Program-made: the position numbers and the translations under genes
Assembly: GCA_029204225.1 (NCBI GenBank)
Contig: MU831845.1
Location: 1 to 64,000, forward strand
Reading direction: 5' to 3'
DNA from: Diphasiastrum complanatum
Taxonomy: Eukaryota > Streptophyta > Lycopodiopsida > Lycopodiales > Lycopodiaceae
DNA length: 64,000 nt
Part shown: piece after piece, positions 3,283 to 34,876 of the stretch
Numbering within the stretch: the first letter of the stretch is position 1
Layout of the letters: each line of letters opens with the position of its first letter
The notes under the pieces: model-generated
What the model was told of the DNA's origin: nothing
What the model saw: the letters and a program-made list of their open reading frames with translations, nothing else
The model's database searches: none

Positions 3283-5694
3283 TTGAGAGTAAAAGATATT
3301 CATAGAGAGGTTGTTTGCATTGGTGATTCCATCAATCAAAATGAGCTAGTTCAAGTCATTCTCAATGGCTTGAGAAGTGAATTTGATAACCTTGTCCAAT
3401 CCTATGCCATTAAGGAGGAGCTACCAAGTTTGGAGGCTCTCCAAAGTGTGCTAATTTCAGAAGAATCAAGACAAGAGTACAAGCTCTTGAGGATGGACAA
3501 GCTTTCTCTCACTCATAATGATGGCAAAGCTCTCTTTTCAAGGATAAGCACAAAGGGAGGAGCAAGAACCAACATCAACAATCCTCAAGCAAGGACAAAG
3601 TCAAATCCAAAGACAAAGATGAGGAGGAAGATGATTTCTCTAATGCTTCATCATCCAAGCTCAAGAAGAAGAAGATCAAGTGCTTTTATTGTGGCAAGAA
3701 AGGTCATTATGCCACCAATTGCTTCAAAAAGAAGAATCAACTCAAGCAAGCCAATATTACCAATGAGAAGGAAGACATTATTGCAAGTGATGGAGAGGGA
3801 TCTCTTATGGTCCTCTAGTTTCTCATCTACTCCTTTCAAGAAGAACGCCTATGGTATATTGATTAGTGGAGCCTCTTCACATATGTGTAGCTCCAAGGAC
3901 TCTTTTTCTTCTATTGCACCTTATGATGGAGTGAAGAAATCAATATACACTGCAAATGATTTTGAATGTCCTATTGAAGGCATAGGGAACATTCCCTTGA
4001 AGCTTGCATCCTCTAAAGTTCTTTCTCTCTCTAGAGTTCTTTATGTACCTAAGCTTACCAAGAATCTTATCAGTGTTGGCCAATTGCTTGATAATGGCCT
4101 TGATGTAAAATTCAATGTTGATACTTGCACTATCAAGAAGAATGATGAGATACTTGCATTAGGATCTAGATTTGGTGGCATCTATAAACTAGATCCAAAT
4201 GAGTATGTGAATGCTTGTAATGTTGCTCTTGTGAACAAGCTCTCTATGGAGGAATTATGGCATAGGAGGTTGGGACATCCCAACTACAAATCCATGCTCT
4301 CTATGATCAAAGAATCCAAAGCTATTGGCTTGCCAAAGTCATTCTCCAAGAAGATCAAGCCTTGTGAGGCTTGTGCTATTGCTAAATCTCACAAAAAGCC
4401 ATTTACAAGATCTTCTATCAAAAGCAAGCATCCTTTGGAGTTAATCCACTCGGATGTGCATTTCTCATCAACTACAAGCAAGGGAGGAGCCACTTGTTTT
4501 GTTACTTTCATTGATGATTACACAAGATTCACTTGGATATATCTTCTTGCTTCAAAATCTATGGTGTTTGATCATTTCCTTATTTTCAAAGCTTATGTAG
4601 AGAAGCAATTCTCATTCAAGATTAAAGCTCTTAGAAGTGATGGAGGTGGTGAATATGTCTCCAATAAATTTCAAGATTTTTGTGAGCTTGACGGCATTAA
4701 AAGAGAGTTTTCTTGTGCCTACTCTCCATCTCAAAATGGAGTGGCCGAGAGAAAGAATAGATCTCTATGTGAATGTGCAAAATCTATGAGAATTGAGGCA
4801 TCTTTGCCCAAAGATTTTTGGGGAGAAGCTATTAATTGTGCAAATTATCTTTGCAATAGGCTCCCACATATAGCTCTTGGAGGAAAGTCACCATATGAAA
4901 TCTTATTTTTGAAGAAGCCTAAGGTTGATCACCTTAGAGTTTTTGGATGCTTATGCTTTGTCCATATTCCCTTGGAAACAAGGAAGAAGGAAGATCCTAG
5001 TGCATGCAAAGGGATCATGGTTGGATACTCATCCACCAAGAAGGCCTATAGAGTCTTTATACTCTCTACTTCTCAAGTTATTGAAAGTAGAGATGTTGTC
5101 TTTCATGAAGATCAACACTCATCATTTGAAGAGGCCAAGATCAAGAAATCTATGGATGCATCATCAATTATTGATTTTGAAGACAATCATGATGTGATGG
5201 GGTCGAGATTTGAAGAAGACTCTCCTCGGATTTTTTCACCAAGAAGATCCATGAGAGACAGATCCGAGCCTAAGAGGCTCTCATATGTTGACAAAGGCAA
5301 ACAAGTGGATCTTGATTCCACTAATTATGTTTTTTATGTCTCTCATGAAGAGCCAAAGAATGTACAAGAGGCACTCAATACCAAGGAGTGGTATGATGCC
5401 ATGAAGCAAGAGTATGATGCATTGATCACCAACAATACTTGGGAGCTTGTGGATCCTCCATCCAACAAGCATGTGATTGGTTGCAAGTGGGTATTTCGGA
5501 TCAAGTTCAATCATGATGGCACCATCAACAAGCATAAAGCAAGATTATGTGCCAAAGGATTTGCTCAAATCCATGGTCTTGATTATGAGGAGACCTTTGC
5601 ACCAGTTGCAAAGATGGTGATAATAAGAATTCTTATTTCTCTTGCTTGTTTTTTCAAGTGGAAGGTGTTCCAATTAGATGTATCCAATGCCTAA
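3283..5694 (+). pseudogene. Copia-1 gag C-term, protease, integrase, start of RT (803-codon frame)
   Basis: One long frame covering the end of Gag, the GAG-pre-integrase zinc region (HRRLGHPN at about residues 327-334), the integrase core with its DD35E-type acidic residues, the chromatin-facing linker and the start of reverse transcriptase. From roughly 3540 to 3830 the frame is the wrong one: the zinc knuckle CFYCGKKGHYATNC is encoded at about 3680-3720 in a different frame, and the protease motif reads ISGASSHM instead of DSGASSHM. A deletion near 5692 ends the frame just inside the reverse transcriptase. It is therefore open but lacks key Gag and protease residues. Confidence 0.9.
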
Positions 5695-24243: not shown

Positions 24244-24589
24244 GGATTAATGGACCATCCTGCACCCGAAACAGTTGACAAACTACACAGTAATTATGCT
24301 TTGTATTTTTCAGAAACGCATTTTTGAACCGCGTTTCTGAACACGATTTTGAAACGCGTTTCAGAAACGCAGTGCATCTATGCTACAGACATAGCATGTG
24401 ATAAGATGAAAAAGAAGCCACATTGTACCATAAAGCACCGTGCAAACCAGCAATGAAACTGGAAATGAGCTCATCTTGGTGTATATCCGAAAAAAGATAG
24501 AGAGCTCAAGAAAATAGGCTAAATATGTGTTGTAAGCTCATTGAAGAACACTTCAATGTGTTGTAAGCTCCTAAAAACATCACTCTATG
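24244..24589. other. Short palindromic words; no clear exon
   Basis: Contains CAGAAACGC / GCGTTTCTG / GAAACGCGTTTC / CAGAAACGC within 24311-24370, a cluster of inverted 9-12-bp words. May include unresolved 3' exons of the neighbouring transposase-like gene or the boundary of its element. Confidence 0.35.
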
Positions 24590-26327
24590 GTACATGCCAT
24601 TGAAAAGAAGCCCATTGGGTTATGTACAATGGTGATCGTCAAATTTGGATCATTTCGAACATTGGGATAATTAAAAAAGACCTTGGACTCTAAAGTGCCA
24701 TTAAACACAAGTGCTCGAGATGAACCTGAATAAAATCTGCCTCATTCAAATTTTTGGGCACTCTGACAAAATGAGGCAACATTGTTTTCTTCTGATCCAT
24801 GCCATCAATAGCAAGGCCCAAATATTTTTGTGGACATTCCAAACATTTTTGTCGATGCTTGGCCAACTTTTGTCTTTCAACTGTTTGTTGATCTCTGTGC
24901 AGTTGAAGAGCTTTGGCAGCATCCACTGAAAATACAATGATTCACTTATTTAATAGAATAAGAATCATACCATAATGATATTAAAAAAGATTGCAACTTA
25001 ATTTTTTTCAAAACAGAAAGTATTAAAATGAATGACAAATTTGATTAATATTTACCTTTCTCATCATTTGGTCTTTGCAAGTTGTTTTGCAGACTTTAAC
25101 AACTCGCAAGTGGAGCATATTGTCATTCGTGATTTTTTGGAAATCTTTACCAGTCCAAGCTTTCTTTTCCAGATTCTAAGAAAATATGAGTAACTCAAAT
25201 AGGAAATATTATTTGTTTTGGCAAATTCTTTGTACATAAAAAATATTTCTAATTTTGTAAAATTATCCGGCAAGTAAAGATATAAGAAATTAGGCAATTT
25301 CTCTCCATGCACATCTATGAAATGCTTTAGAGAAACAGTTCGCTCTGTAAGGATCCCCGTAATGTTGGGTCTTTATGAAGTTGTGCATGTATTCGTTGAA
25401 GCCGTGAGTTTTCGATTGCGTGAACTGCTTTGTAAGCTTTGCGACACACCTCCAAAGCATTAAAAAAAAATACAAAAATGAGTTTTAGTCTAGCCTCACT
25501 GTTGCACACAAATAGTTATTTCTCTCATCCTTACTTCATAAAAATAAATTTGATCTTAATTTTTCAATTTCTTTGATACTCAACTTTTGCAAACAACAAA
25601 ATGAGCAGCATATAATATTCTATACTTTTCGAATCTCAGATTTTGTAGTCAACTGTTTTTGACGATTCATTAAATCAAGTGAGGATCTCAAGTCTCTCTT
25701 GTATTTTTCTTTTTGTTTGGAGTTTGATCTATAAATTGAACTTGTGACACTAGTAGGTGTTTGAATTGGTTGAGAAAGTGTTAGAATTTCATGACTCGAA
25801 ATTTTGGCTCCAACCTCAGGATGTTCTGGAAGCTGAAAAGGCTCTAAATCCAACGAATATAGCCCAAGTTAGATTTAAAACGATGAACATCACTTTGAGA
25901 AGGTCTCCTATGAATATGAGAAAAGCTTGAACGTTGTGGATCAACAGACTTACGTGGATCTGTTGATTTACTAGAATCAGTAATTGAGTGAATTGAAGCT
26001 TTTGACTCATCACTCAATGATTCAACTTGTTCAAAAGAACAATGTTCTAATTGTGCAGAGCCTATACTTGAAGAGGAGGACAAGGTCATAAGATTTGACA
26101 CAAGTTGAGTTACAAGCGTCATTTCTTGAAAAGTACTTGCTTGAGGAATTTCAGAAGATGAACGGGTAAATGATGATGATGCCACATCATTTATAAAAAC
26201 ATGTTGAGAATCAGGAGTGGCTTTATAAAAAAAAGCTTTCATTGGAAATATCAGATGAAGATGATGCACTTGTTGCAATATATTGAGTTACAACTACTGA
26301 AATAGAAGAGGTAGAACTACTTGACAT
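24590..26327 (-). pseudogene. DUF7869-like transposase-related protein (decayed, 3 exons visible)
   Basis: ATG at 26327-26325 opens a Ser/Thr-rich N-terminus (MSSSSTSSISVV). An A8 run at about 26230 shifts the frame, and the low-complexity region continues to about 25622. After an intron, exon 2 (about 25500-25055) carries EVCRKAYKAVHAIENSRLQRI, YLPDNFTKLEIFFMYKEF and an FLRIW...ICSTCELL zinc-binding-like CxxC block, again with a frame change. Exon 3 (about 24925-24590) has LGLAIDGMDQKKTMLPHFVR, where the Asp residues could belong to an RNase H fold, then after a frameshift NGTLESKVFFNYPN. This order of blocks matches my recollection of DUF7869-type proteins found in mobile elements of many eukaryotes. 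The C-terminal catalytic part is not visible. It lies head to head with the ParB-methylase gene. Confidence 0.6.
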
Positions 26328-26360
26328 CGTAACCTTAAACAAAAATTCTAACTATGTACT

Positions 26361-29300
26361 TATGCTAAGCATAGACCTGTTAAAATAGTTAACACATAAA
26401 ACTAAATGTGCTCCACAAACTTAACTGCAACCTATGCTGGTCATAGAACAAATAAAAATCTATGTGAACCTCAATAGACGTAAACAAGAAAAACAACTAA
26501 ATGCAAATGAGCAACAAGCCTAGAAAGTAATTGGTTAGTTGAAATTTCCAGTGGCTACCATGCCAAGCATAACTCACCTCATCTGCGAATTCAGAAGCAC
26601 ACATGCTGCCAAAGCTCTCGCTACAACAAAGTCACAGATTTCTATAGTATATTGCATACGTTCTCGCTCACACATTTCTTGATGGTAAGATTATTGTCAT
26701 TTTTTAACTTTGTTCTATGCTTAGCATGGATACTAAATTATTGCATTACTAAATATTCAGGTTTTAGCTAGTGTTCAAATTCTTCAAACTTGGGTGACTT
26801 ATGCTCAGCATAGGTGGTTGCACGAGTCCTCTCCACTAACCTATGTTGAGCATAGATTGTGTTCGGGTCCTAAGTAACAACCTATGATCAACATAGGAAG
26901 CCGGCGAGATGTTTCTATTCTAACCACGTTTCGACCTATGCTGAGCATAGGTTGCATCTCTGGTCCTCTTCCCACCTATGCTCAGCATAGGATGTCTTTG
27001 CATGCTGCTTGCTAACCTATGCTTAGCATAGGTTAGAAGAGGACTAGAGATGCAACCTATGCTCAACATAGGTCGATAGGTGATAAGAATAGAAAGATCA
27101 TGTTGACATCCTATGCTGAGCATAGGTTGTTACTCAGGACCCGGACACAACCCATGCTCAACACAGGTCGTTACTCGTATTTTGCCCGTTTTACAAGGCT
27201 TTGTCTAAGAAAAGTGAAACCTTTGAGTGTTTTAGTAAGAAAATGTGTTGAATTTTTAGTTATGATTTTTAGAGATTTTTTACAAAAACTACTTGTCTAT
27301 TTAAAGTTTTCGGTATTTTCATTAAGGTGATGTTTTAAATTTTCCTAAAAAATCTTTTCTGCAGATTCTCAATTGTCTAATCTTTGAAATGTCGAGGATT
27401 TTTTTTTAAATTTTGGGTAAACTTCAAGATATTCCACTGAAAGATAAAAAAAAATTCATGTACTACTTCACCAGAGGGGTCAACAACACAAAGCTATTTG
27501 AGCTTTAGCTAAGAAGCCTGGCAGGGGAGACTCACAATTTTGAATTCAAGGAAGATTGCTTGCTGATCAACCAGATGAGGATGAGGAAGAAGGTCTTGTG
27601 AACGTGCTTGTAAAGGAGACGGATAAGTCTCGTTCTATTTTCATTCTGAACGAGACTATGATAAAGATTCGACTTTGCCAGGACAGCCTATTTTGATAAA
27701 GCTCTAGTTACTTTGGTGTGTAATTATAAAACAGATTTTTATTCATGTATGTTTACATTTGTTCCATGCTTAGCATAGTGGCTACTAAATATAAAATTCT
27801 ATGAACTTTTAAGTAAAAGCCTTTACTCATTATATTTAAAACTTGTTTTTTTGTTTCTGTCTAGGGCATGAAGCAATGCTTAAAAATGGTTCTAGCTGCT
27901 ATTATTGAGGGGAAAGATCCAGTCTACTCATTACGGAGTTCAAAAGGTGTATCTATTGGACCTCATAAGCCTGCTTCTGCCACTACTCAGATCACAAAGC
28001 CAGTCTCTGAAAATGTTGAGGATGATACTGTAGCTGTCCCTCATCCCAAAAAAAAAGATCTCATAATATTTCTGAGTCCTCTCTCACTAGACCCAAGTCA
28101 CGTCCAAAGACCATGGCTACACATTGCCAAAAGTCCATTCCATCTGTTGAAAGCAAGAAAGCCACGACCAAACCGTTGATGTCTTTACTTGGTGCCTCCA
28201 TCCGTCCCTTACAAGATAGCTCTGAACTTGCTAAATTAAGAGAAGATTTTCATAAAGCAAAAAAATTAAAGAAACAACTTTGATTTTAGATATGAATCAG
28301 TGTGATAGGCCATCTGTAGACCCAATAATAGGAGATAGGCCAATGGAAGTAACAGAACCATATGAAACACATGTACATAACTTAAAAATAAAATTTAAAG
28401 ATCATATATAAGCCATAGTTACTCCTTTTGTTGTTTTGGTTGATCCCAACGAATGTAACAATGTTGCATATTTTGATTTTTCTTTATTAGATTCATATCA
28501 TTTTTTGGTTCTTGGGGACATACACAGTTTACAAGCCCGAAAACAGTTATCTCAAGAGTATCCCCATATTCCATCCTTTCGAATTGTGAGTGCAATTGCA
28601 TTTGCTGGCCTGACAGTGGAAGAATCCAAATTATTGGCTTGGGAATATAACATTGATTAAGATTATCGGATGAAAATGACCGTCATACAAAGAATCCGAT
28701 TCTTTCACAAAGAATACACGGGAGTATCCAAAGCAGGAGATGTGAATCAACTAGAGCTGAAAGCACTTTGTGCTCAAGAGACAGGCCTACCTTTTTATTT
28801 GAAAAATCCTACGCAGAGCCTTACAAAATATGATAATTTTTTTCAGCTTGCTTTTCGTAGTGGCTAGGTAATTTTTTTTGGCTATGCTCGTCATGGAATT
28901 CTCTGGTCATAATATATGCTATAATTCTTTTAAATTATTTTTATCAGACTAAAATTTTGAACTCAATTTTAATACTACCTAAATACCTTATCAAATAATT
29001 TTTTTTTGTTTTATTTTAGGTGTGGGCCCTTGTTGATAAAATTTTTGACAAATGAAAAACTTTTCAAATAAAAGGCCAACCTGCTCAAGGTGTCTCAAAG
29101 TCAAAGAAAAAAGTTGTCAGCACTCAAACTCTGAAGCCAATCCCTACAGAAATGAGAATATCAGAGTGGAAGAACATGCAAGGGATTAGTTCTTCAAAGC
29201 TTATAATAAGTGTTCTTTCTAGAGTTGCCGATGGTCAACTTTCTTTGGCAGAAATGGAGAAGAATTTCAAAGGTAATAATCATAATCTTAATATTTATTT

Positions 29301-29607
29301 ATATGTTACTTTTTGTAATAAAGTTCCAAAAACCCTTGTGACAGGGTTAAATTATCAAGATTTCGAAGAGTGCCAAAGGCCTTATCCTTTGAACAGCCGA
29401 AATGAATCTTTGAGTCCATTTCTGGTTTTGTTTAGAGACATGGTATTTATTTCACCCATGCTTAGCATAGGTGCTTATTAATTGTTTTTTTTTTTCTATT
29501 TTATATCTCCTATGCTAAGCATAGCTTTTTCTTTATTTAATTATTTTTTTTGATACTTTAAATCTCCTATTCTATCTTGTATTTTATGTCTCACATGCTA
29601 AGCATAG
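26361..29607. repeat. Dispersed palindromic 17-mer CCTATGCTNAGCATAGG
   Basis: At least 17 exact or near copies: 26361, 26431, 26715, 26799, 26840, 26881, 26935, 26975, 27016, 27056, 27110, 27151, 27764, 28881, 29455, 29509 and 29593 (starts). Eight sit in the long inverted repeat 26840-27167. The others lie upstream of the minus-strand gene or within introns of the plus-strand methylase gene, not in its exons. Each unit is itself a dyad (TATGCTNAGCATA), typical of a dimeric protein-binding site. Confidence 0.9.
26840..27167. repeat. Long inverted repeat between the divergent genes
   Basis: The arm 26840-26991 is inverted at 27016-27167 with roughly 80-85 percent identity by eye, around a 24-bp centre. 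Identical words in both arms include TTGCATCTCT, GTCCTCTTC and GTAACAACCTATG. Each arm carries four or more copies of the 17-bp palindrome. Transcription across it would give a strong RNA hairpin. It sits between the transposase-like gene (start 26327) and the methylase gene (clear from 27865). Confidence 0.85.
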
Positions 29608-30837
29608 CTTTTTCTTTTTCAGTCTCCTGAAGATAAGAAAAACAAAGTCCTTCCAAAGCAATTCAAGAGACATATTCTGAAGGCAAAAGCAGAAAAAAGA
29701 GACAAGGAGAGATTAGCACGGGGTGAGACCATTGCCGAAGAGGATCCATTAGAGACCTACCTTCCCAAAAGTGTCGATGATCAACCATGTTTAGTGGACG
29801 ATTGTAGAGAAATTTCAAAATTTTAAAAAAAAAAGGCCTTATACACTCTGCATTGCCAATATACCATATGGATTTCAGATGAAGGAATCATTAAATGGCG
29901 ATTTCTCCTTCAAATTCACTGAAATCCATAGTTTCATGCAGGGTTTTCTCGAAATCACAACTTTTCCATTTTGGAGAGTTGTTATTTTTCATTATTCTAA
30001 TTGGCAGTCAACTTCAGTACAAAAAGCTCTACTAACTTTTTATAATGCGAGAATAGAAAATACTGTGTGGTAAGTTTTTAAGTTCTTGAATTATTAATTC
30101 GTATTTTAATTCATAATTATATTTTAAATTTTTTTATTTTAAAGTTAAATTTTTTTATTTATTTTACTTGTAATGTTCCATGTCAGGTACAAGCTCAATG
30201 TCAGGAATTCGGAAGGAGCACGACTTTGCAATGAAATAGAATACATAACCATCGGTTATTATTCTTTGGATGACAAACGCTCAATGCTTCATTACAATAC
30301 TTCCGGACTAACAAGCTTTGGAAACTTGTTCCAGTATCTAGCCGTGACCAAAAAACTAAAGAATTCAATGACGGGTTCCATGGTTTGTCTTTACCAAAAG
30401 CCACAACAATTAATTAATCATTTAATTGATATTTTTCTCACCCAGCTGATTGGATTTTGGATTTATTTAGTGGTAGCAGCACTACGAATGCATGTGCTGT
30501 TCAAAAGGGTAGACATGTTGCTGCAGTAGATTTAGATTCTAATTTAGTTGATTTTGTGAAAATGAGAATGAAATCTCTTTCAGTTTTGTCAGATAAACTA
30601 TCTGAGGTGAGAAAGAGTTTAGATAGCGAGGATTCAGTAATTTCATTGTCCAAAGAACCTCAGCCTCCTACTAGCGGTAAAGTAGGCGATATAGGAGAAT
30701 TTGCTAATGTCTTGGTTCAAGATTATAATGTGGTTACGGTAGTCGAGAAAATTGTAGAAGAGGTGCCACTTGAAGCTACAGTGGCTACTCAAGAAAAAGA
30801 AAAAAATGTAAATGACCTCGATGATTTTTTAGAATAA
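27865..30837 (+). pseudogene. ParB-like plus N6/N4 DNA methyltransferase gene (decayed, multi-exon)
   Basis: A probable earlier exon at about 27540-27712 (acidic PDEDEEEG) contains stops. From 27865 the gene encodes a linker (KGVSIGPHKP), then at 28436-28867 a ParB-like domain: YHFLVLGDIHSLQARKQL, with GDIHS in place of the ParB GxHR box, and GLTVEESKLLAWEYNID. After introns at about 28868-29020, 29271-29325 and 29441-29622 comes a methylase of the N6_N4_Mtase family: catalytic motif IV as ANIPYGF (about 29860), EITTFPFWRVVIFH, ENTVW then NSEGARLCNEIEYITIGYYS, the YQKPQQLINHLI box and finally motif I ILDLFSGSSTTNA (about 30460). Motif IV before motif I is the beta-class order. Lesions: stops near 28410 and 28658, frameshifts at A or T runs near 28050, 29823 and 30431. 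The role would be adenine-N6 or cytosine-N4 DNA methylation. Plant nuclear genes do not normally encode this architecture. Confidence 0.75.
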
Positions 30838-31579
30838 AAATTTCTCTTTTAATATTAAATCAATCAAAAAAAATTGCGTTTATATTTTTTAATGTATTGT
30901 GTTTTGAGATCTTTTTGATTGATTTAATATTCTTAAATTTGTTTTTTAATGATTTAAAATTAAGAATTCGAAATATTTTAAAAATTTTAACATTGATAAT
31001 CATTACCAAAACTAAAATTGTAACGATTTGTCAAGTTTATAATATTTTAATTTTGAATGTGTTTTTATAATATTTTTTGTAGAAAAAACTATTGTTAGAA
31101 ATTTAAAAAAATGAAAAGATTTTTTTCAAGGTGATTTAAATATTTACACAAATTATTTAATCTCGATTATTGTAAAGTAATTTCATTTGCGTTTATTTAA
31201 TGTTTAAATATTCAACGAACTTACATAGGTATAAGTAAAGATTTTAAAAAATTTTAAAACTTTTAAAATACTTATTAAAAATTTTATCATAATTTAAAAA
31301 GTATTTTTTTATACAAGAGTTGTAATTTAAAAAACTTTTAAAATTTAAAAAAATATATATATAACTTTTGCTCTAAATAAGCAAAAAATATTTTTTTTTT
31401 ATTTTAGTGTTTGGGTATCTAATGATTTTATTTTGAATAGTATTATTATCTCATATAAGCTAATTTTAAGTTATTTATGAAAATCTATTGACCAAATTTT
31501 TGTAGTTTGAATTATTTTATTGTAAAATACAACATTTTTTTAATATTACAATATATTTATTTGAAGCATTTTAAATCTG
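30838..31579. other. AT-rich gap with a perfect 20-bp hairpin
   Basis: 30851-30870 is perfectly inverted at 30912-30931 (core TTGATTGATTTAATA) just after the methylase stop. The next 600 bp are almost entirely A and T, without codons of interest. The boundary between the methylase element and the CACTA fragment should lie in this gap, but I cannot place it. Confidence 0.6.
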
Positions 31580-32080
31580 GATACTTTAAAAAAAAAATGG
31601 GTCTCCATGTCATTTCTATTTTTTTTGGTCATCATGTTTTTTATGAATCGTTCGAAGAAAAACATCCAACGACCATGGACAATGCTTGAAATAAAAATAC
31701 GAATAGTCCACTTAGCTTGTTGTCCCTTGTGAAGGCACCTTTTAGGCATCGCATGTGTCCTGTCGGAGTTTGAAATGAGGCTATTGCCTTCTTTATAATA
31801 GTCTCTTCTCTCCTCGAGAAGATCCATGGAGCCTTTGTGAGGACAATTGAATTCCCCACCATTTGTGGCCATAAATCGGCCATCTTTTCTACTTCTTTTA
31901 AGTCATCTCGTACATCTTTTTTATCTTTCAACCTGGTCAAGTGCTCCCAAATCGTGCTCCCGACATTCTTGAATAAAGTGCATCGGGTCCAAAAAATGGT
32001 TTATCAACAATTCTCCCAATACGGAAGTTCACGAAATATTGATAACCTCTTCATACCAAGAGGGAGAGTTGAAGAGAGAG
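31580..32080 (-). pseudogene. CACTA (En/Spm) transposase fragment
   Basis: On the minus strand the frames give FLDPMHF near 32000, equivalent to the LDPMHI block of Transposase_21 proteins. They continue with EHDLGALDQVER, LWPQMVGNS and a DUF4218-like stretch (KAIASFQTPTGHMRCLKG, 31750-31700), ending with HGRWMFFFERFIKNM near 31650, which corresponds to the HYRWMYPFERFM block. Frames change several times and the segment between the last two blocks is shortened. Together with 23001-24243 it outlines one minus-strand CACTA element whose middle is occupied by the transposase-like/methylase gene pair. Confidence 0.7.
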
Positions 32081-32870: not shown

Positions 32871-33438
32871 ATAAATAACAAAAGATGATTGGTATCTCTG
32901 AAAAATCCAGAAAGTGAAGATCCTTGATCATCCTCTGATCCATACCATCTCCTTTGTGCAATGTGTAAGAGCTTTGTACTCGGCCTCACTAGATGGCAAT
33001 GAGATAGTGGCTTGTTTCTTCGACATCCATGATATAGCTCCATCACCTATGAAAATACAATGAGCACTAATGAATTTCCTATCCATTACATCTCCATCAT
33101 AGTCTGAATCTGAAAATCCAAAAAGATTAGGTGATGATCCCTCATACAATTTGCCAAAATCTTGAGTTCCAATGATGTACCTCAAAACTCGTTTTCCTAG
33201 CTTCCAATGCTCCTCACTAGGATCTTGCATGAATTGACTCAATCTTCCAGCACAATAGCTTAGATTCCATCTAGTAATGGTTAGATAGATGAGTGAACCA
33301 ACTAGCTTCCTATAGAGAGTAATGTCCTTGAAGGATCCTTCATTACCTCTTATAGTTAGCTTTACATGAGACTCCATAGGTATATCACTAGCTTTTGTAT
33401 CTACCATATGAAATCTTTCTAGAAAAGAATTAGCATAT
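32871..33438 (-). pseudogene. Copia RNase H fragment
   Basis: Minus-strand frame 33407-32928 and a short extension across a TGA: DIPMESHVKLT, GSLIYLTITRWNLSYCAGRLSQFMQDPSEEHW, SDSDYDGDVMDRK, SSEAEYKALTHCTKEMVWI, then LHFLDFSEIPIIFC. This is the end of a Ty1/copia RT plus RNase H, close to the composite copia at 41-54 kb. Two conserved positions are changed (TRPDLSF reads TRWNLSY). The fragment has no LTR and is inverted relative to the copia sequence that starts at 33439. Confidence 0.88.
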
Positions 33439-34876
33439 TTCTAATTAAGAATGGTTTTATTCCAAACTCAACAGATTTGAATGTTTATTTCAAGTCTGTA
33501 TTGAATTTTTTCATTATCATCACTATTTATGTAGATGAATCATTACTATTCAATAACAATCTGATGAAGGATATGAAATACATGCTAGCATAAGAGTACA
33601 AAATGACTGATATGGGTCTACAACCCATTACTCTCTCAGGATTTATATGTTTCAAATTCGATCTTATAGATAAATTTTCATCATTCAACAATGATATTTC
33701 ACCAACGTGCTAGATAGATGTGGAATGACCAACTGCAAATTGAGTCACTTTCCACTCGACCTTGGAATGAAGCTGTCAAAGGAACAATCTCCTCAAATAG
33801 AGGGAAGAAATGAAGCAATAAGTCAGAATCTCAACGAATCCAATCACATAAGAGGATCAAAGTTCATCCCAGAAGATCGAACCGATCCAGACATTCTAAA
33901 TCTTGATTTATAAATGATCCAGCTTGTTACTTTGTGTAGAAAACAAACACAATTTTTGAAGCAATGTCAACTTTTGATGTTGACCAGTGGAAAGCTACAA
34001 TAGACACATAATCCAATTCTCTGATAGAGAATCAAATGTGGACACCAAAATCCGATTCTATGCAAATGGTTATTCAAATCAAAGTATGATGCTGAAGGAA
34101 GTTTAAATCGATACAAGGCCAGACTAGTCACCAAAGGCTTCTCCCAGATTCTAGATCTGAATTATTCTAAGACCTTTAGTCTTGTTGTCAAACATGCTTC
34201 AATTCGATTACTTCTTCCATATGCAACTGCAACAGACTCAAAGTCCACCAAATGGATGTCCATATTGCTTTTCTCAACGAGACTATCAAAGAGAAAATAT
34301 ATATGTCACAGCTAGAGGGATATGAACTGAAGGGTAAGGAGCACCTAGTGTGTAAAATTCACAAGGCTTTGTATGGTCAGAAATAGTCACCAAGAGCTTG
34401 GTTTTAGAAAATTAATACATTTCTAATTAAGAATGGTTTTATTCCAAACTCGACAGACTCGAATGTTTATTTCAAGTCTGTATCGAATTTTTTCATCAGC
34501 ATCACTCTTTATGTAGATGATACATTACTATCCAATAACAATCTGAATTTGATGAAGGATATGAAATTCATGCTAGCAAAGGAGTACAAAATGACTGATA
34601 TGAATCGACAACCCATTACTCTCTTGGAATTTATATTTTTCAAATTCAATCCAATAGACAAATTTTCATTATTCAACAATGATATTTCATCAACATGCTG
34701 GACAGATGTGGAATGACCAAATACAAATCAAGTTACTTTCCACTTGACCTTGGACTAAAGCTGTCAAAGGAACAATCTCCTCAAATAGAGACAAAAAAGG
34801 AAGAAATGAAGCAATATTCATTTCACTCCATCATCGGCTCACTGATGTATACAATGGTCTGCACTCGACCCGACCT
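33439..34876 (+). pseudogene. Copia RT fragment with an internal duplication
   Basis: The segment 33439-33822 recurs at 34421-34816 with about 90 percent identity by eye. Between the copies lies the part that belongs upstream in RT (LNRYKARLVTKGFSQI). The second copy carries LYVDDTLLSNN, the catalytic YVDD, and runs into GSLMYTMVCTRPDLA. Stops and frameshifts are frequent, so this is old. The duplicated order RT-3', RT-5', RT-3' suggests a tandem duplication or two overlapping fragments of one family. Confidence 0.8.

What the first reader, a model, noticed from the sequence alone, without database searches (positions are those of the whole stretch)
24590..30837. Candidate mobile system: DUF7869-like protein head to head with a ParB-DNA methyltransferase gene
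Seen: minus-strand exons with IDGMDQKKTMLPHF and ICSTCELL blocks; plus-strand exons with a ParB-like LVLGDIHSLQA block and, downstream, ANIPYGF then ILDLFSGSSTTNA. Known: ParB-N fused to N6/N4 methylases is common in phages and bacterial mobile elements; the order motif IV before motif I defines beta-class enzymes; DUF7869-type proteins occur in eukaryotic mobile elements. Inferred: the two genes are the core of one eukaryotic mobile element that carries its own non-5mC DNA methylase, perhaps to mark or protect its own copies. I do not recall such a pairing described in plants.
Basis: partly seen in the sequence, partly recalled or inferred. Interest (0 to 1): 0.92.

Follow-up and report, generated by a model that had tools for sequence, protein, structure and literature searches.

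The report
Plant transposon carrying its own DNA methylase
The stretch is a broken copy of what looks like a plant jumping gene that pairs a probable transposase with a bacterial-type DNA methylase and carries a row of regularly spaced mirror-image DNA sites, a layout that recurs in probable fern DNA and suggests that the element recognises and marks its own copies.

Summary
Window 24620-31638 is a decayed copy of a repeat family. The minus gene is a DUF7869 protein: relative L028 hits Pfam DUF7869 at 7.8e-35, but most of that domain is deleted here. The plus gene ends in a beta-class N6/N4 methylase (relative L012 2.2e-14; nearest solved CcrM and RsrI). The ParB label was not confirmed by any profile or fold. 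The genome gave 150 scored N6_N4_Mtase matches. Nine of 21 copies examined keep DUF7869-gene pieces, each divergent from the methylase.

New here: six of those 21 copies keep the region between the genes, and all six carry 10-13 palindromes, CCTATGCTNAGCATAGG, mostly 40-42 bp apart. Six methylase contigs, probably from the fern Azolla, are under strong purifying selection. Four of them carry a different array, GTCGATGCNNNGCATCGAC, with the shared core ATGCNNNGCAT, stepped by about 41 bp in three and by 50/31 in one. One contig has DUF7869 head to head.

ParB-methylases in algal DNA transposons are in print (PMC12477816, passages read). This is a land-plant variant with a candidate target site. 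Mobility and methylation are inferred.

The parts
24620..24941 (-). DUF7869-gene exon (IDGMDQKK...); left edge of the surviving element, where similarity to other copies stops; rest of the DUF7869 domain deleted
   Evidence: relative L028:2574-2999 hits DUF7869 at 7.2e-06 and L028:2047-2631 at 7.8e-35
25064..25372 (-). DUF7869-gene exon with ICSTCELL block
25620..26327 (-). N-terminal exons of the DUF7869 gene; ATG at 26325-26327, frame change near 26287
26359..26447 (.). two palindromes just 5' of the DUF7869-gene start
26714..27167 (.). array of 10 palindromes CCTATGCTNAGCATAGG (up to 3 mismatches), steps 84,42,41,54,40,41,40,54,41, in the region between the two genes
26839..27168 (.). large inverted repeat (arms 26839-26991 and 27016-27168, 153 nt, 85%) formed by the array
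27505..27684 (+). decayed N-terminal exon of the methylase gene (N1)
   Evidence: WIN 3506-3685 plus 23999
27763..27779 (.). single palindrome in a presumed intron
27865..28283 (+). methylase-gene exon E1, split by a frame change
   Evidence: 43-44% identical to six probable-fern contigs (PARBw rows)
29080..29271 (+). middle exon (EMRISEWKNMQG...)
   Evidence: MID
29455..29608 (.). three palindromes in a presumed intron, also present at the corresponding place in other copies
29608..29826 (+). linker exon before the methylase
29795..30073 (+). methylase exon with motif IV: NIPY here; DIPY in 9 of the 15 copies where it can be read and in 6 of 6 probable-fern contigs
30186..30443 (+). methylase exon (YKLNVRNSEGARLCNEIEY...)
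30430..30837 (+). methylase exon with motif I (DLFSGSSTTNA); Pfam N6_N4_Mtase 1.6e-05, 25.4 bits (cut-off 26.7)
31628..31638 (+). candidate right terminal repeat GTCATCATGTT (reverse complement AACATGATGAC)

Best explanation
The window holds a dead copy of a two-gene DNA transposon of land plants. One gene encodes a DUF7869 protein, most likely the transposase. The divergent gene encodes a large protein ending in a beta-class, probably N6-adenine, DNA methylase, an accessory that acts on the element itself. The region 5' of the methylase gene (between the genes in the window's genome; in the probable fern, apparently in intron 1 of the methylase gene) carries an array of 17-19 bp palindromes with the core ATGCNNNGCAT, stepped by about 41 bp. 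Most likely an element-encoded protein, probably the methylase protein through its N-terminal or middle part, binds these palindromes and methylates adenines in or near them, so that element copies are recognised and marked, tuning their expression, silencing or transposition. Shown: gene identities in relatives, divergent pairing, the array and its conservation, purifying selection on the methylase. Inferred: transposase role, mobility, which protein binds, methylation and its purpose.
For: DUF7869 7.8e-35 (L028) and N6_N4_Mtase up to 2.2e-14 (L012) in copies of the same genome. Methylase nearest CcrM 2.2e-9 and RsrI 9.8e-9 by profile. DIPYGF motif IV before DLFSGSGTT motif I. 150 scored N6_N4_Mtase matches of 1605 first-look candidates; some are duplicates on small contigs, and I checked family membership only for the copies I fetched. 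Divergent pairing in 9 of 9 copies that keep any DUF7869-gene piece, of 21 examined. Array: 16 sites (up to 3 mismatches) within 26359-29608 and none elsewhere in the 64-kb window, 0.12 expected; 117 sites in 21 copies against 0-10 for 40 arm-shuffled motifs; 67 sites in the 6 copies that keep the region, T5, T8 and A13 each 67 of 67. Palindrome columns differ in 6.7-8.3% of comparisons against 16.3-20.7% for spacers; palindromes were defined on a row left out of the count, and L028 was never counted. Probable-fern contigs: same core and similar steps, including a 54-bp one (L040: 41,40,40,43,41,43,42,54), and 19 sites at up to 3 mismatches against 0-1 for 40 shuffled motifs. Their exon pairs differ by 0.53-0.98 per synonymous site against 0.03-0.24 per nonsynonymous site. 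Median dN/dS 0.20 (0.06-1.28, 246 of 253 pairs) over a 99-residue methylase stretch in 23 copies of the window's genome, the window not among them. Candidate terminal repeats: AAYACGATGA at 3 left ends, TCAYCATGYT at 5 right ends; L012 left and window right match in 10 of 11 bases.
Against: No copy with both ends was found and no target-site duplication was seen. The fuller copies of the window's genome whose frames I listed (L012, L015, L028) all carry lesions. DNA binding and methylation are untested. The ParB identity failed every test. DUF7869 has no solved relative by sequence below E 0.1, so its transposase role is inference. 12 of 21 copies show no DUF7869 piece in the 10 kb fetched. 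In probable-fern L042 the pair adjoins across what looks like a deletion; the stretches fetched of the other five start too close to the methylase gene to show a DUF7869 gene, and at least two of those contigs (L041, L045) continue beyond what I hold. 6 of 21 copies in the window's genome and 2 of 6 probable-fern contigs show no palindrome at up to 3 mismatches. In L045 the steps are 50 and 31, not 41. The two arrays differ in sequence outside the core. Some dN/dS pairs exceed 1.
Confidence: 0.5

Rival explanations
1. The palindromes are binding sites of the DUF7869 protein (transposase or its regulator), used for promoter autoregulation or transposome assembly; the methylase acts elsewhere or only on host silencing.
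For: Arrays of repeated sites near transposase genes are common in plant transposons (recalled). Sites also lie next to the DUF7869-gene start (26359, 26431), and the array forms a large inverted repeat between the genes.
Against: In probable-fern L045 and L041 the sites lie within what looks like intron 1 of the methylase gene, and further sites lie in presumed methylase-gene introns in the window and other copies. None of the window's sites lies within 2 kb of the right end.
Confidence: 0.3
2. In the probable fern these are domesticated host methylase genes, not transposons; the window's genome holds transposon copies or decayed paralogues of such a gene.
For: Four of six probable-fern contigs keep a large first exon open, with saturated synonymous change and strong constraint, as expected of maintained genes; no ends were recognised there.
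Against: Six diverged copies in one sample, arrays in four, DUF7869 gene attached in L042. Constraint is also expected of transposon lineages that must stay functional.
Confidence: 0.2
3. Two unrelated genes that happen to lie side by side and were amplified by chance with other repeats.
For: Many copies are truncated and lack one partner: 12 of 21 show no DUF7869 piece in the 10 kb fetched.
Against: Divergent pairing in every copy that keeps both, including diverged copies (L009, L016) and probable-fern L042.
Confidence: 0.03

Closest known systems
ParB-like plus N4/N6 methylase accessory gene of the Ectocarpus Sola1-1_Ec32 DNA transposon (PMC12477816, passages; green and red algal cases mentioned there)
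   Same: Methylase of the N6/N4 kind encoded on the strand opposite the transposase of a DNA transposon; same suggested role of binding and modifying its own transposon
   Different: Here the partner is a DUF7869 protein (relation to Sola1 transposase untested), the host is a land plant, the element is about 8.2 kb (L028) rather than 21.5 kb, and a conserved palindrome array is found; ParB part unconfirmed
DIRS retrotransposons with Dam-like adenine methylase (mentioned in PMC5890265, passages)
   Same: Mobile element that carries an adenine methylase
   Different: Retrotransposon; Dam-like enzyme (alpha class as I recall), not beta-class; no DUF7869 partner known to me
Bdelloid rotifer N4CMT (PMC8885841, passages)
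   Same: Bacterial-type permuted (beta) PF01555 enzyme in a eukaryote, with introns
   Different: SPPY motif (N4-cytosine); described there as a horizontally acquired host gene, not a transposon gene
Beta-class bacterial methylases CcrM and RsrI
   Same: Closest solved relatives of the methylase domain by profile; motif order IV then I
   Different: Free bacterial enzymes; motif IV here is DIPY rather than DPPY

Membership tests
N6_N4_Mtase (Pfam PF01555) | Score over the curated cut-off | tested here: met
   Relatives L012 54.4 and L028 47.4 bits against 26.7; window exon alone 25.4 bits, just below
N6_N4_Mtase (Pfam PF01555) | Beta-class order: motif IV (DPPY type) N-terminal to motif I (FxGxG) | tested here: met
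   DIPYGF then DLFSGSGTT in relatives; window has NIPY and GSS, probably inactive
DUF7869 (Pfam PF25273) | Score over the curated cut-off | tested here: met
   L028 120.6 bits, L042 121.4 bits against 26; window pieces: no hit, domain mostly deleted
ParB/sulfiredoxin-like N-terminal domain | Profile or fold match to ParB | tested here: inconclusive
   No ParB match in Pfam, NCBIfam, PHROGs or PDB sequences; SopB profile 0.5% (exceeded by 2 of 15 column shuffles); folds at mean pLDDT 37.7 and 41.7; weak DUF6551 at 0.019-0.071 in 3 of 4 probable-fern stretches, below cut-off
DNA transposon | Terminal inverted repeats | tested here: inconclusive
   AAYACGATGA at 3 left ends and TCAYCATGYT at 5 right ends, 10 of 11 bases matching; no single copy with both
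DNA transposon | Target-site duplication | not tested
   No copy with both ends available
DNA transposon | Dispersed repeat family | tested here: met
   150 scored methylase matches on many contigs; 20 read out, each matching the window's methylase exons
Sola1 transposon with ParB-methylase | Sola1 transposase | not tested
   No Sola1 profile at hand; relation of DUF7869 to Sola1 unknown

The most novel reading that the evidence does not exclude
A land-plant transposon family carries a self-recognition system: its own adenine methylase binds a phased palindromic array (core ATGCNNNGCAT, about 41-bp step) in its own regulatory region and writes a non-5mC mark there, and site, spacing and enzyme have been kept together by selection across lineages as distant as (probably) lycophytes and ferns.
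Probability: 0.3. Interest if true: 0.9.

Novelty: new variant of a known kind. Interest (0 to 1): 0.72.

Why it matters
Whether transposons write their own epigenetic marks, and whether adenine methylation has a real role in plants, are open questions. A conserved, regularly spaced candidate target site beside a methylase under selection gives a specific sequence at which to look for the mark; the passages that I read of the published algal case name no such site.

Tried and rejected
ParB domain: tested by Pfam, NCBIfam, PHROGs, PDB sequence search, profile comparison with SopB and two AlphaFold2 jobs; none supports it. The folds were too poor to be worth a fold search, so none was made. Phage DNA gave 40 records, of which the 20 listed match only in the methylase part; of the four proteins I then scanned, three were matched methylases and one (from L033) was by oversight a neighbouring C5 methylase; none had a ParB domain at E up to 0.001. 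Viral contigs gave no relative of DUF7869 or of the supposed ParB stretch, and one weak methylase match (none). Plasmids gave none for the supposed ParB stretch. N-terminal homology between the methylase gene of the window's genome and the probable-fern gene was seen by eye only; BLASTP at 1e-2 found none. Palindromes ACGTCGGAATCCGACGT in L016 and L019 lie outside the aligned element and were set aside.

Not answered: the genome-wide DUF7869 search (genome search, family PF25273) was asked 30 times and did not complete, so genome-wide co-occurrence, copy number and target duplications are untested.
Full report
What is there. The window is G000:C327 of a 1.74-Gb, 5176-contig genome. The named peptide blocks are all present in open frames at the coordinates given. 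Pfam on ten of the window's own pieces gives only the last methylase exon, just under its cut-off (N6_N4_Mtase 1.6e-05, 25.4 bits against 26.7); other hits are weak and unrelated. The copy is decayed: a stop at 28658-28660 and several frame changes.

The family. A search of the genome with N6_N4_Mtase gave 1605 first-look candidates, of which 150 were scored and listed as over the cut-off; several look like duplicates on small contigs. I read out 20 stretches of 10 kb, chosen by me for match quality and open frame; with the window that makes 21 copies. Nine of 21 keep at least one piece of the minus gene, and in all nine it lies 5' of the methylase gene on the other strand; in L013 it is about 5 kb away. 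Copies L012, L015 and L028 align to most of the window's element, mostly at 82-89% identity. In L028 the minus gene hits DUF7869 at 7.8e-35 and the methylase exon hits at 3e-12; L012 gives 2.2e-14. In the window the similarity stops at 24620, so most of the DUF7869 domain has been lost. Next to L012 lies a second copy in the same orientation (L030).

Ends. Three copies (L010, L012, L015) share the left end AAYACGATGA, with different sequence outside, and five (window, L011, L023, L027, L028) share the right end TCAYCATGYT (window 31628-31638); L012 left and window right match in 10 of 11 bases as inverted repeats. No copy that I hold has both ends, so target duplications are untested.

The methylase. 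Motif IV precedes motif I (DLFSGSGTT), the beta-class order; motif IV reads DIPY in 9 of the 15 copies where it can be read, NIPY in 3 (the window among them), YIPY in 2 and DITY in 1. By profile the nearest solved enzymes are CcrM (2.2e-9) and RsrI (9.8e-9), adenine methylases (their base specificity recalled); that the product is N6-methyladenine is therefore likely, not shown. Among 23 copies of the window's genome (not the window itself) a 99-residue stretch has a median dN/dS of 0.20, range 0.06-1.28, in 246 of 253 pairs with a usable ratio; among 162 deep pairs the median difference is 0.56 at synonymous and 0.18 at nonsynonymous sites.

ParB. No library or comparison supports it, and two structure predictions were of low confidence (means 37.7 and 41.7). 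A weak DUF6551 match (E 0.019-0.071 in three of four stretches, below cut-off) falls on the same part in the contigs of the next paragraph. The by-eye motif is compatible with ParB, no more.

Relatives elsewhere. The six carry exons broken by introns with GT donors and are therefore probably host DNA binned with the cyanobacterium. Trichormus azollae is a listed cyanobacterium; that it lives in the fern Azolla is recalled, so the plant is probably Azolla. Four of six hold an open first large frame of 562-584 aa; L040 has three stops in it and L042 lacks its 5' part. They are 43-46% identical to the window's family over the supposed ParB stretch. Differences are 0.53-0.98 per synonymous site against 0.03-0.24 per nonsynonymous site across the exon pairs compared; exon limits were taken as open frames, so a few intron codons are included. 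L042 has a DUF7869 gene (4.6e-35) head to head with the methylase gene, across what looks like a deletion. The stretches fetched of the other five start too near the methylase gene to tell, and the contigs of L041 and L045 continue beyond what I hold.

The array. CCTATGCTNAGCATAGG (up to 3 mismatches) occurs 16 times in the window, all within 26359-29608, against 0.12 expected. In the 21 copies there are 117 sites in 15 copies and none in 6 (L014, L016, L017, L020, L022, L027); 40 arm-shuffled motifs gave 0-10. The six copies that keep the region between the genes carry 10-13 sites each, 67 in all (in L015 and L028 two of them near the DUF7869-gene start), with steps of mostly 40-42 bp, recurrent 54 and 84, and a few others. 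T5, T8 and A13 are invariant in the 67, while the central base is free. Palindrome columns, defined on one row and counted among others, L028 never counted, differ in 6.7-8.3% of comparisons against 16.3-20.7% in spacers for each of six choices of row. One search gave 8.9% against 21.5%, but there sites were picked by similarity, which favours the result. The diverged copies L011, L013 and L009 keep ATGCTNAGCAT sites.

In the probable-fern contigs a different palindrome, GTCGATGCNNNGCATCGAC, stands 5' of the first large exon in L040 (9 sites at up to 4 mismatches, steps 41,40,40,43,41,43,42,54), L044 (4; 41,41,41), L045 (5; 50,31,50,31) and L041 (2; 42); L043 has none and L042 one stray 4-mismatch match inside coding sequence. 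At up to 3 mismatches there are 19 sites, against 0-1 for 40 arm-shuffled motifs. The two palindromes share ATGCNNNGCAT. In L045 and L041 a short exon 1 with a GT donor appears to precede the array, which would put it in intron 1; this gene model is mine.

How it most likely works. DUF7869 as transposase, the methylase as a self-directed accessory, and the array as the site that one of the two proteins reads. Shown: identities, pairing, array and its conservation, constraint. Inferred: everything about binding, methylation, movement and benefit.

What is known. A search for DUF7869 in 5.39 million open papers gave none. A 2025 Ectocarpus paper (PMC12477816; [quoted passage not shown] Of the two works it cites for this, I did not try the 2011 chapter by Iyer and others, and the 2025 Bostrychia paper is not held; a 2016 review by Iyer and others is not held either. 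DIRS elements with adenine methylases are mentioned in PMC5890265 (passages), and TET/JBP genes in fungal transposons in PMC12730594 (passages). The listings (15 of 19 papers shown, 10 of 98) showed no land-plant case; I opened passages of four papers only, and this is an open-licence library. Hence a new variant of a known kind: land plants, a DUF7869 partner, and a conserved candidate target site.

Species. The contig lengths I saw fall from 83.9 Mb (C2) to 44.8 Mb (C22) and then 10.9 Mb (C24), which fits 22 or 23 chromosomes if contigs are numbered by size; I recall n = 23 for the lycophyte Diphasiastrum complanatum. This is inference; the listing does not settle it.

Noticed in passing
G000:C22:12333634-12347569: Four N6_N4_Mtase matches about 4.5 kb apart on one strand, a probable tandem array of partial copies
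   Followed up: no
L012 and L030: Two copies of the element lie head to tail, about 370 bp apart
   Followed up: partly
L016 and L019: Another palindrome, ACGTCGGAATCCGACGT, repeated outside the element; may belong to a different repeat
   Followed up: no
L040-L045: A prokaryote species genome (Trichormus MAG CAKZGI) in the collection seems to contain plant host contigs with introns
   Followed up: partly
window 32928-33440 (-): Frame that looks like a Copia-type retrotransposon polyprotein beside the element (recognised by eye)
   Followed up: no
window 24318-24383: Short inverted repeat with GAAACGCGTTTC-like motifs just outside the truncated left edge
   Followed up: no
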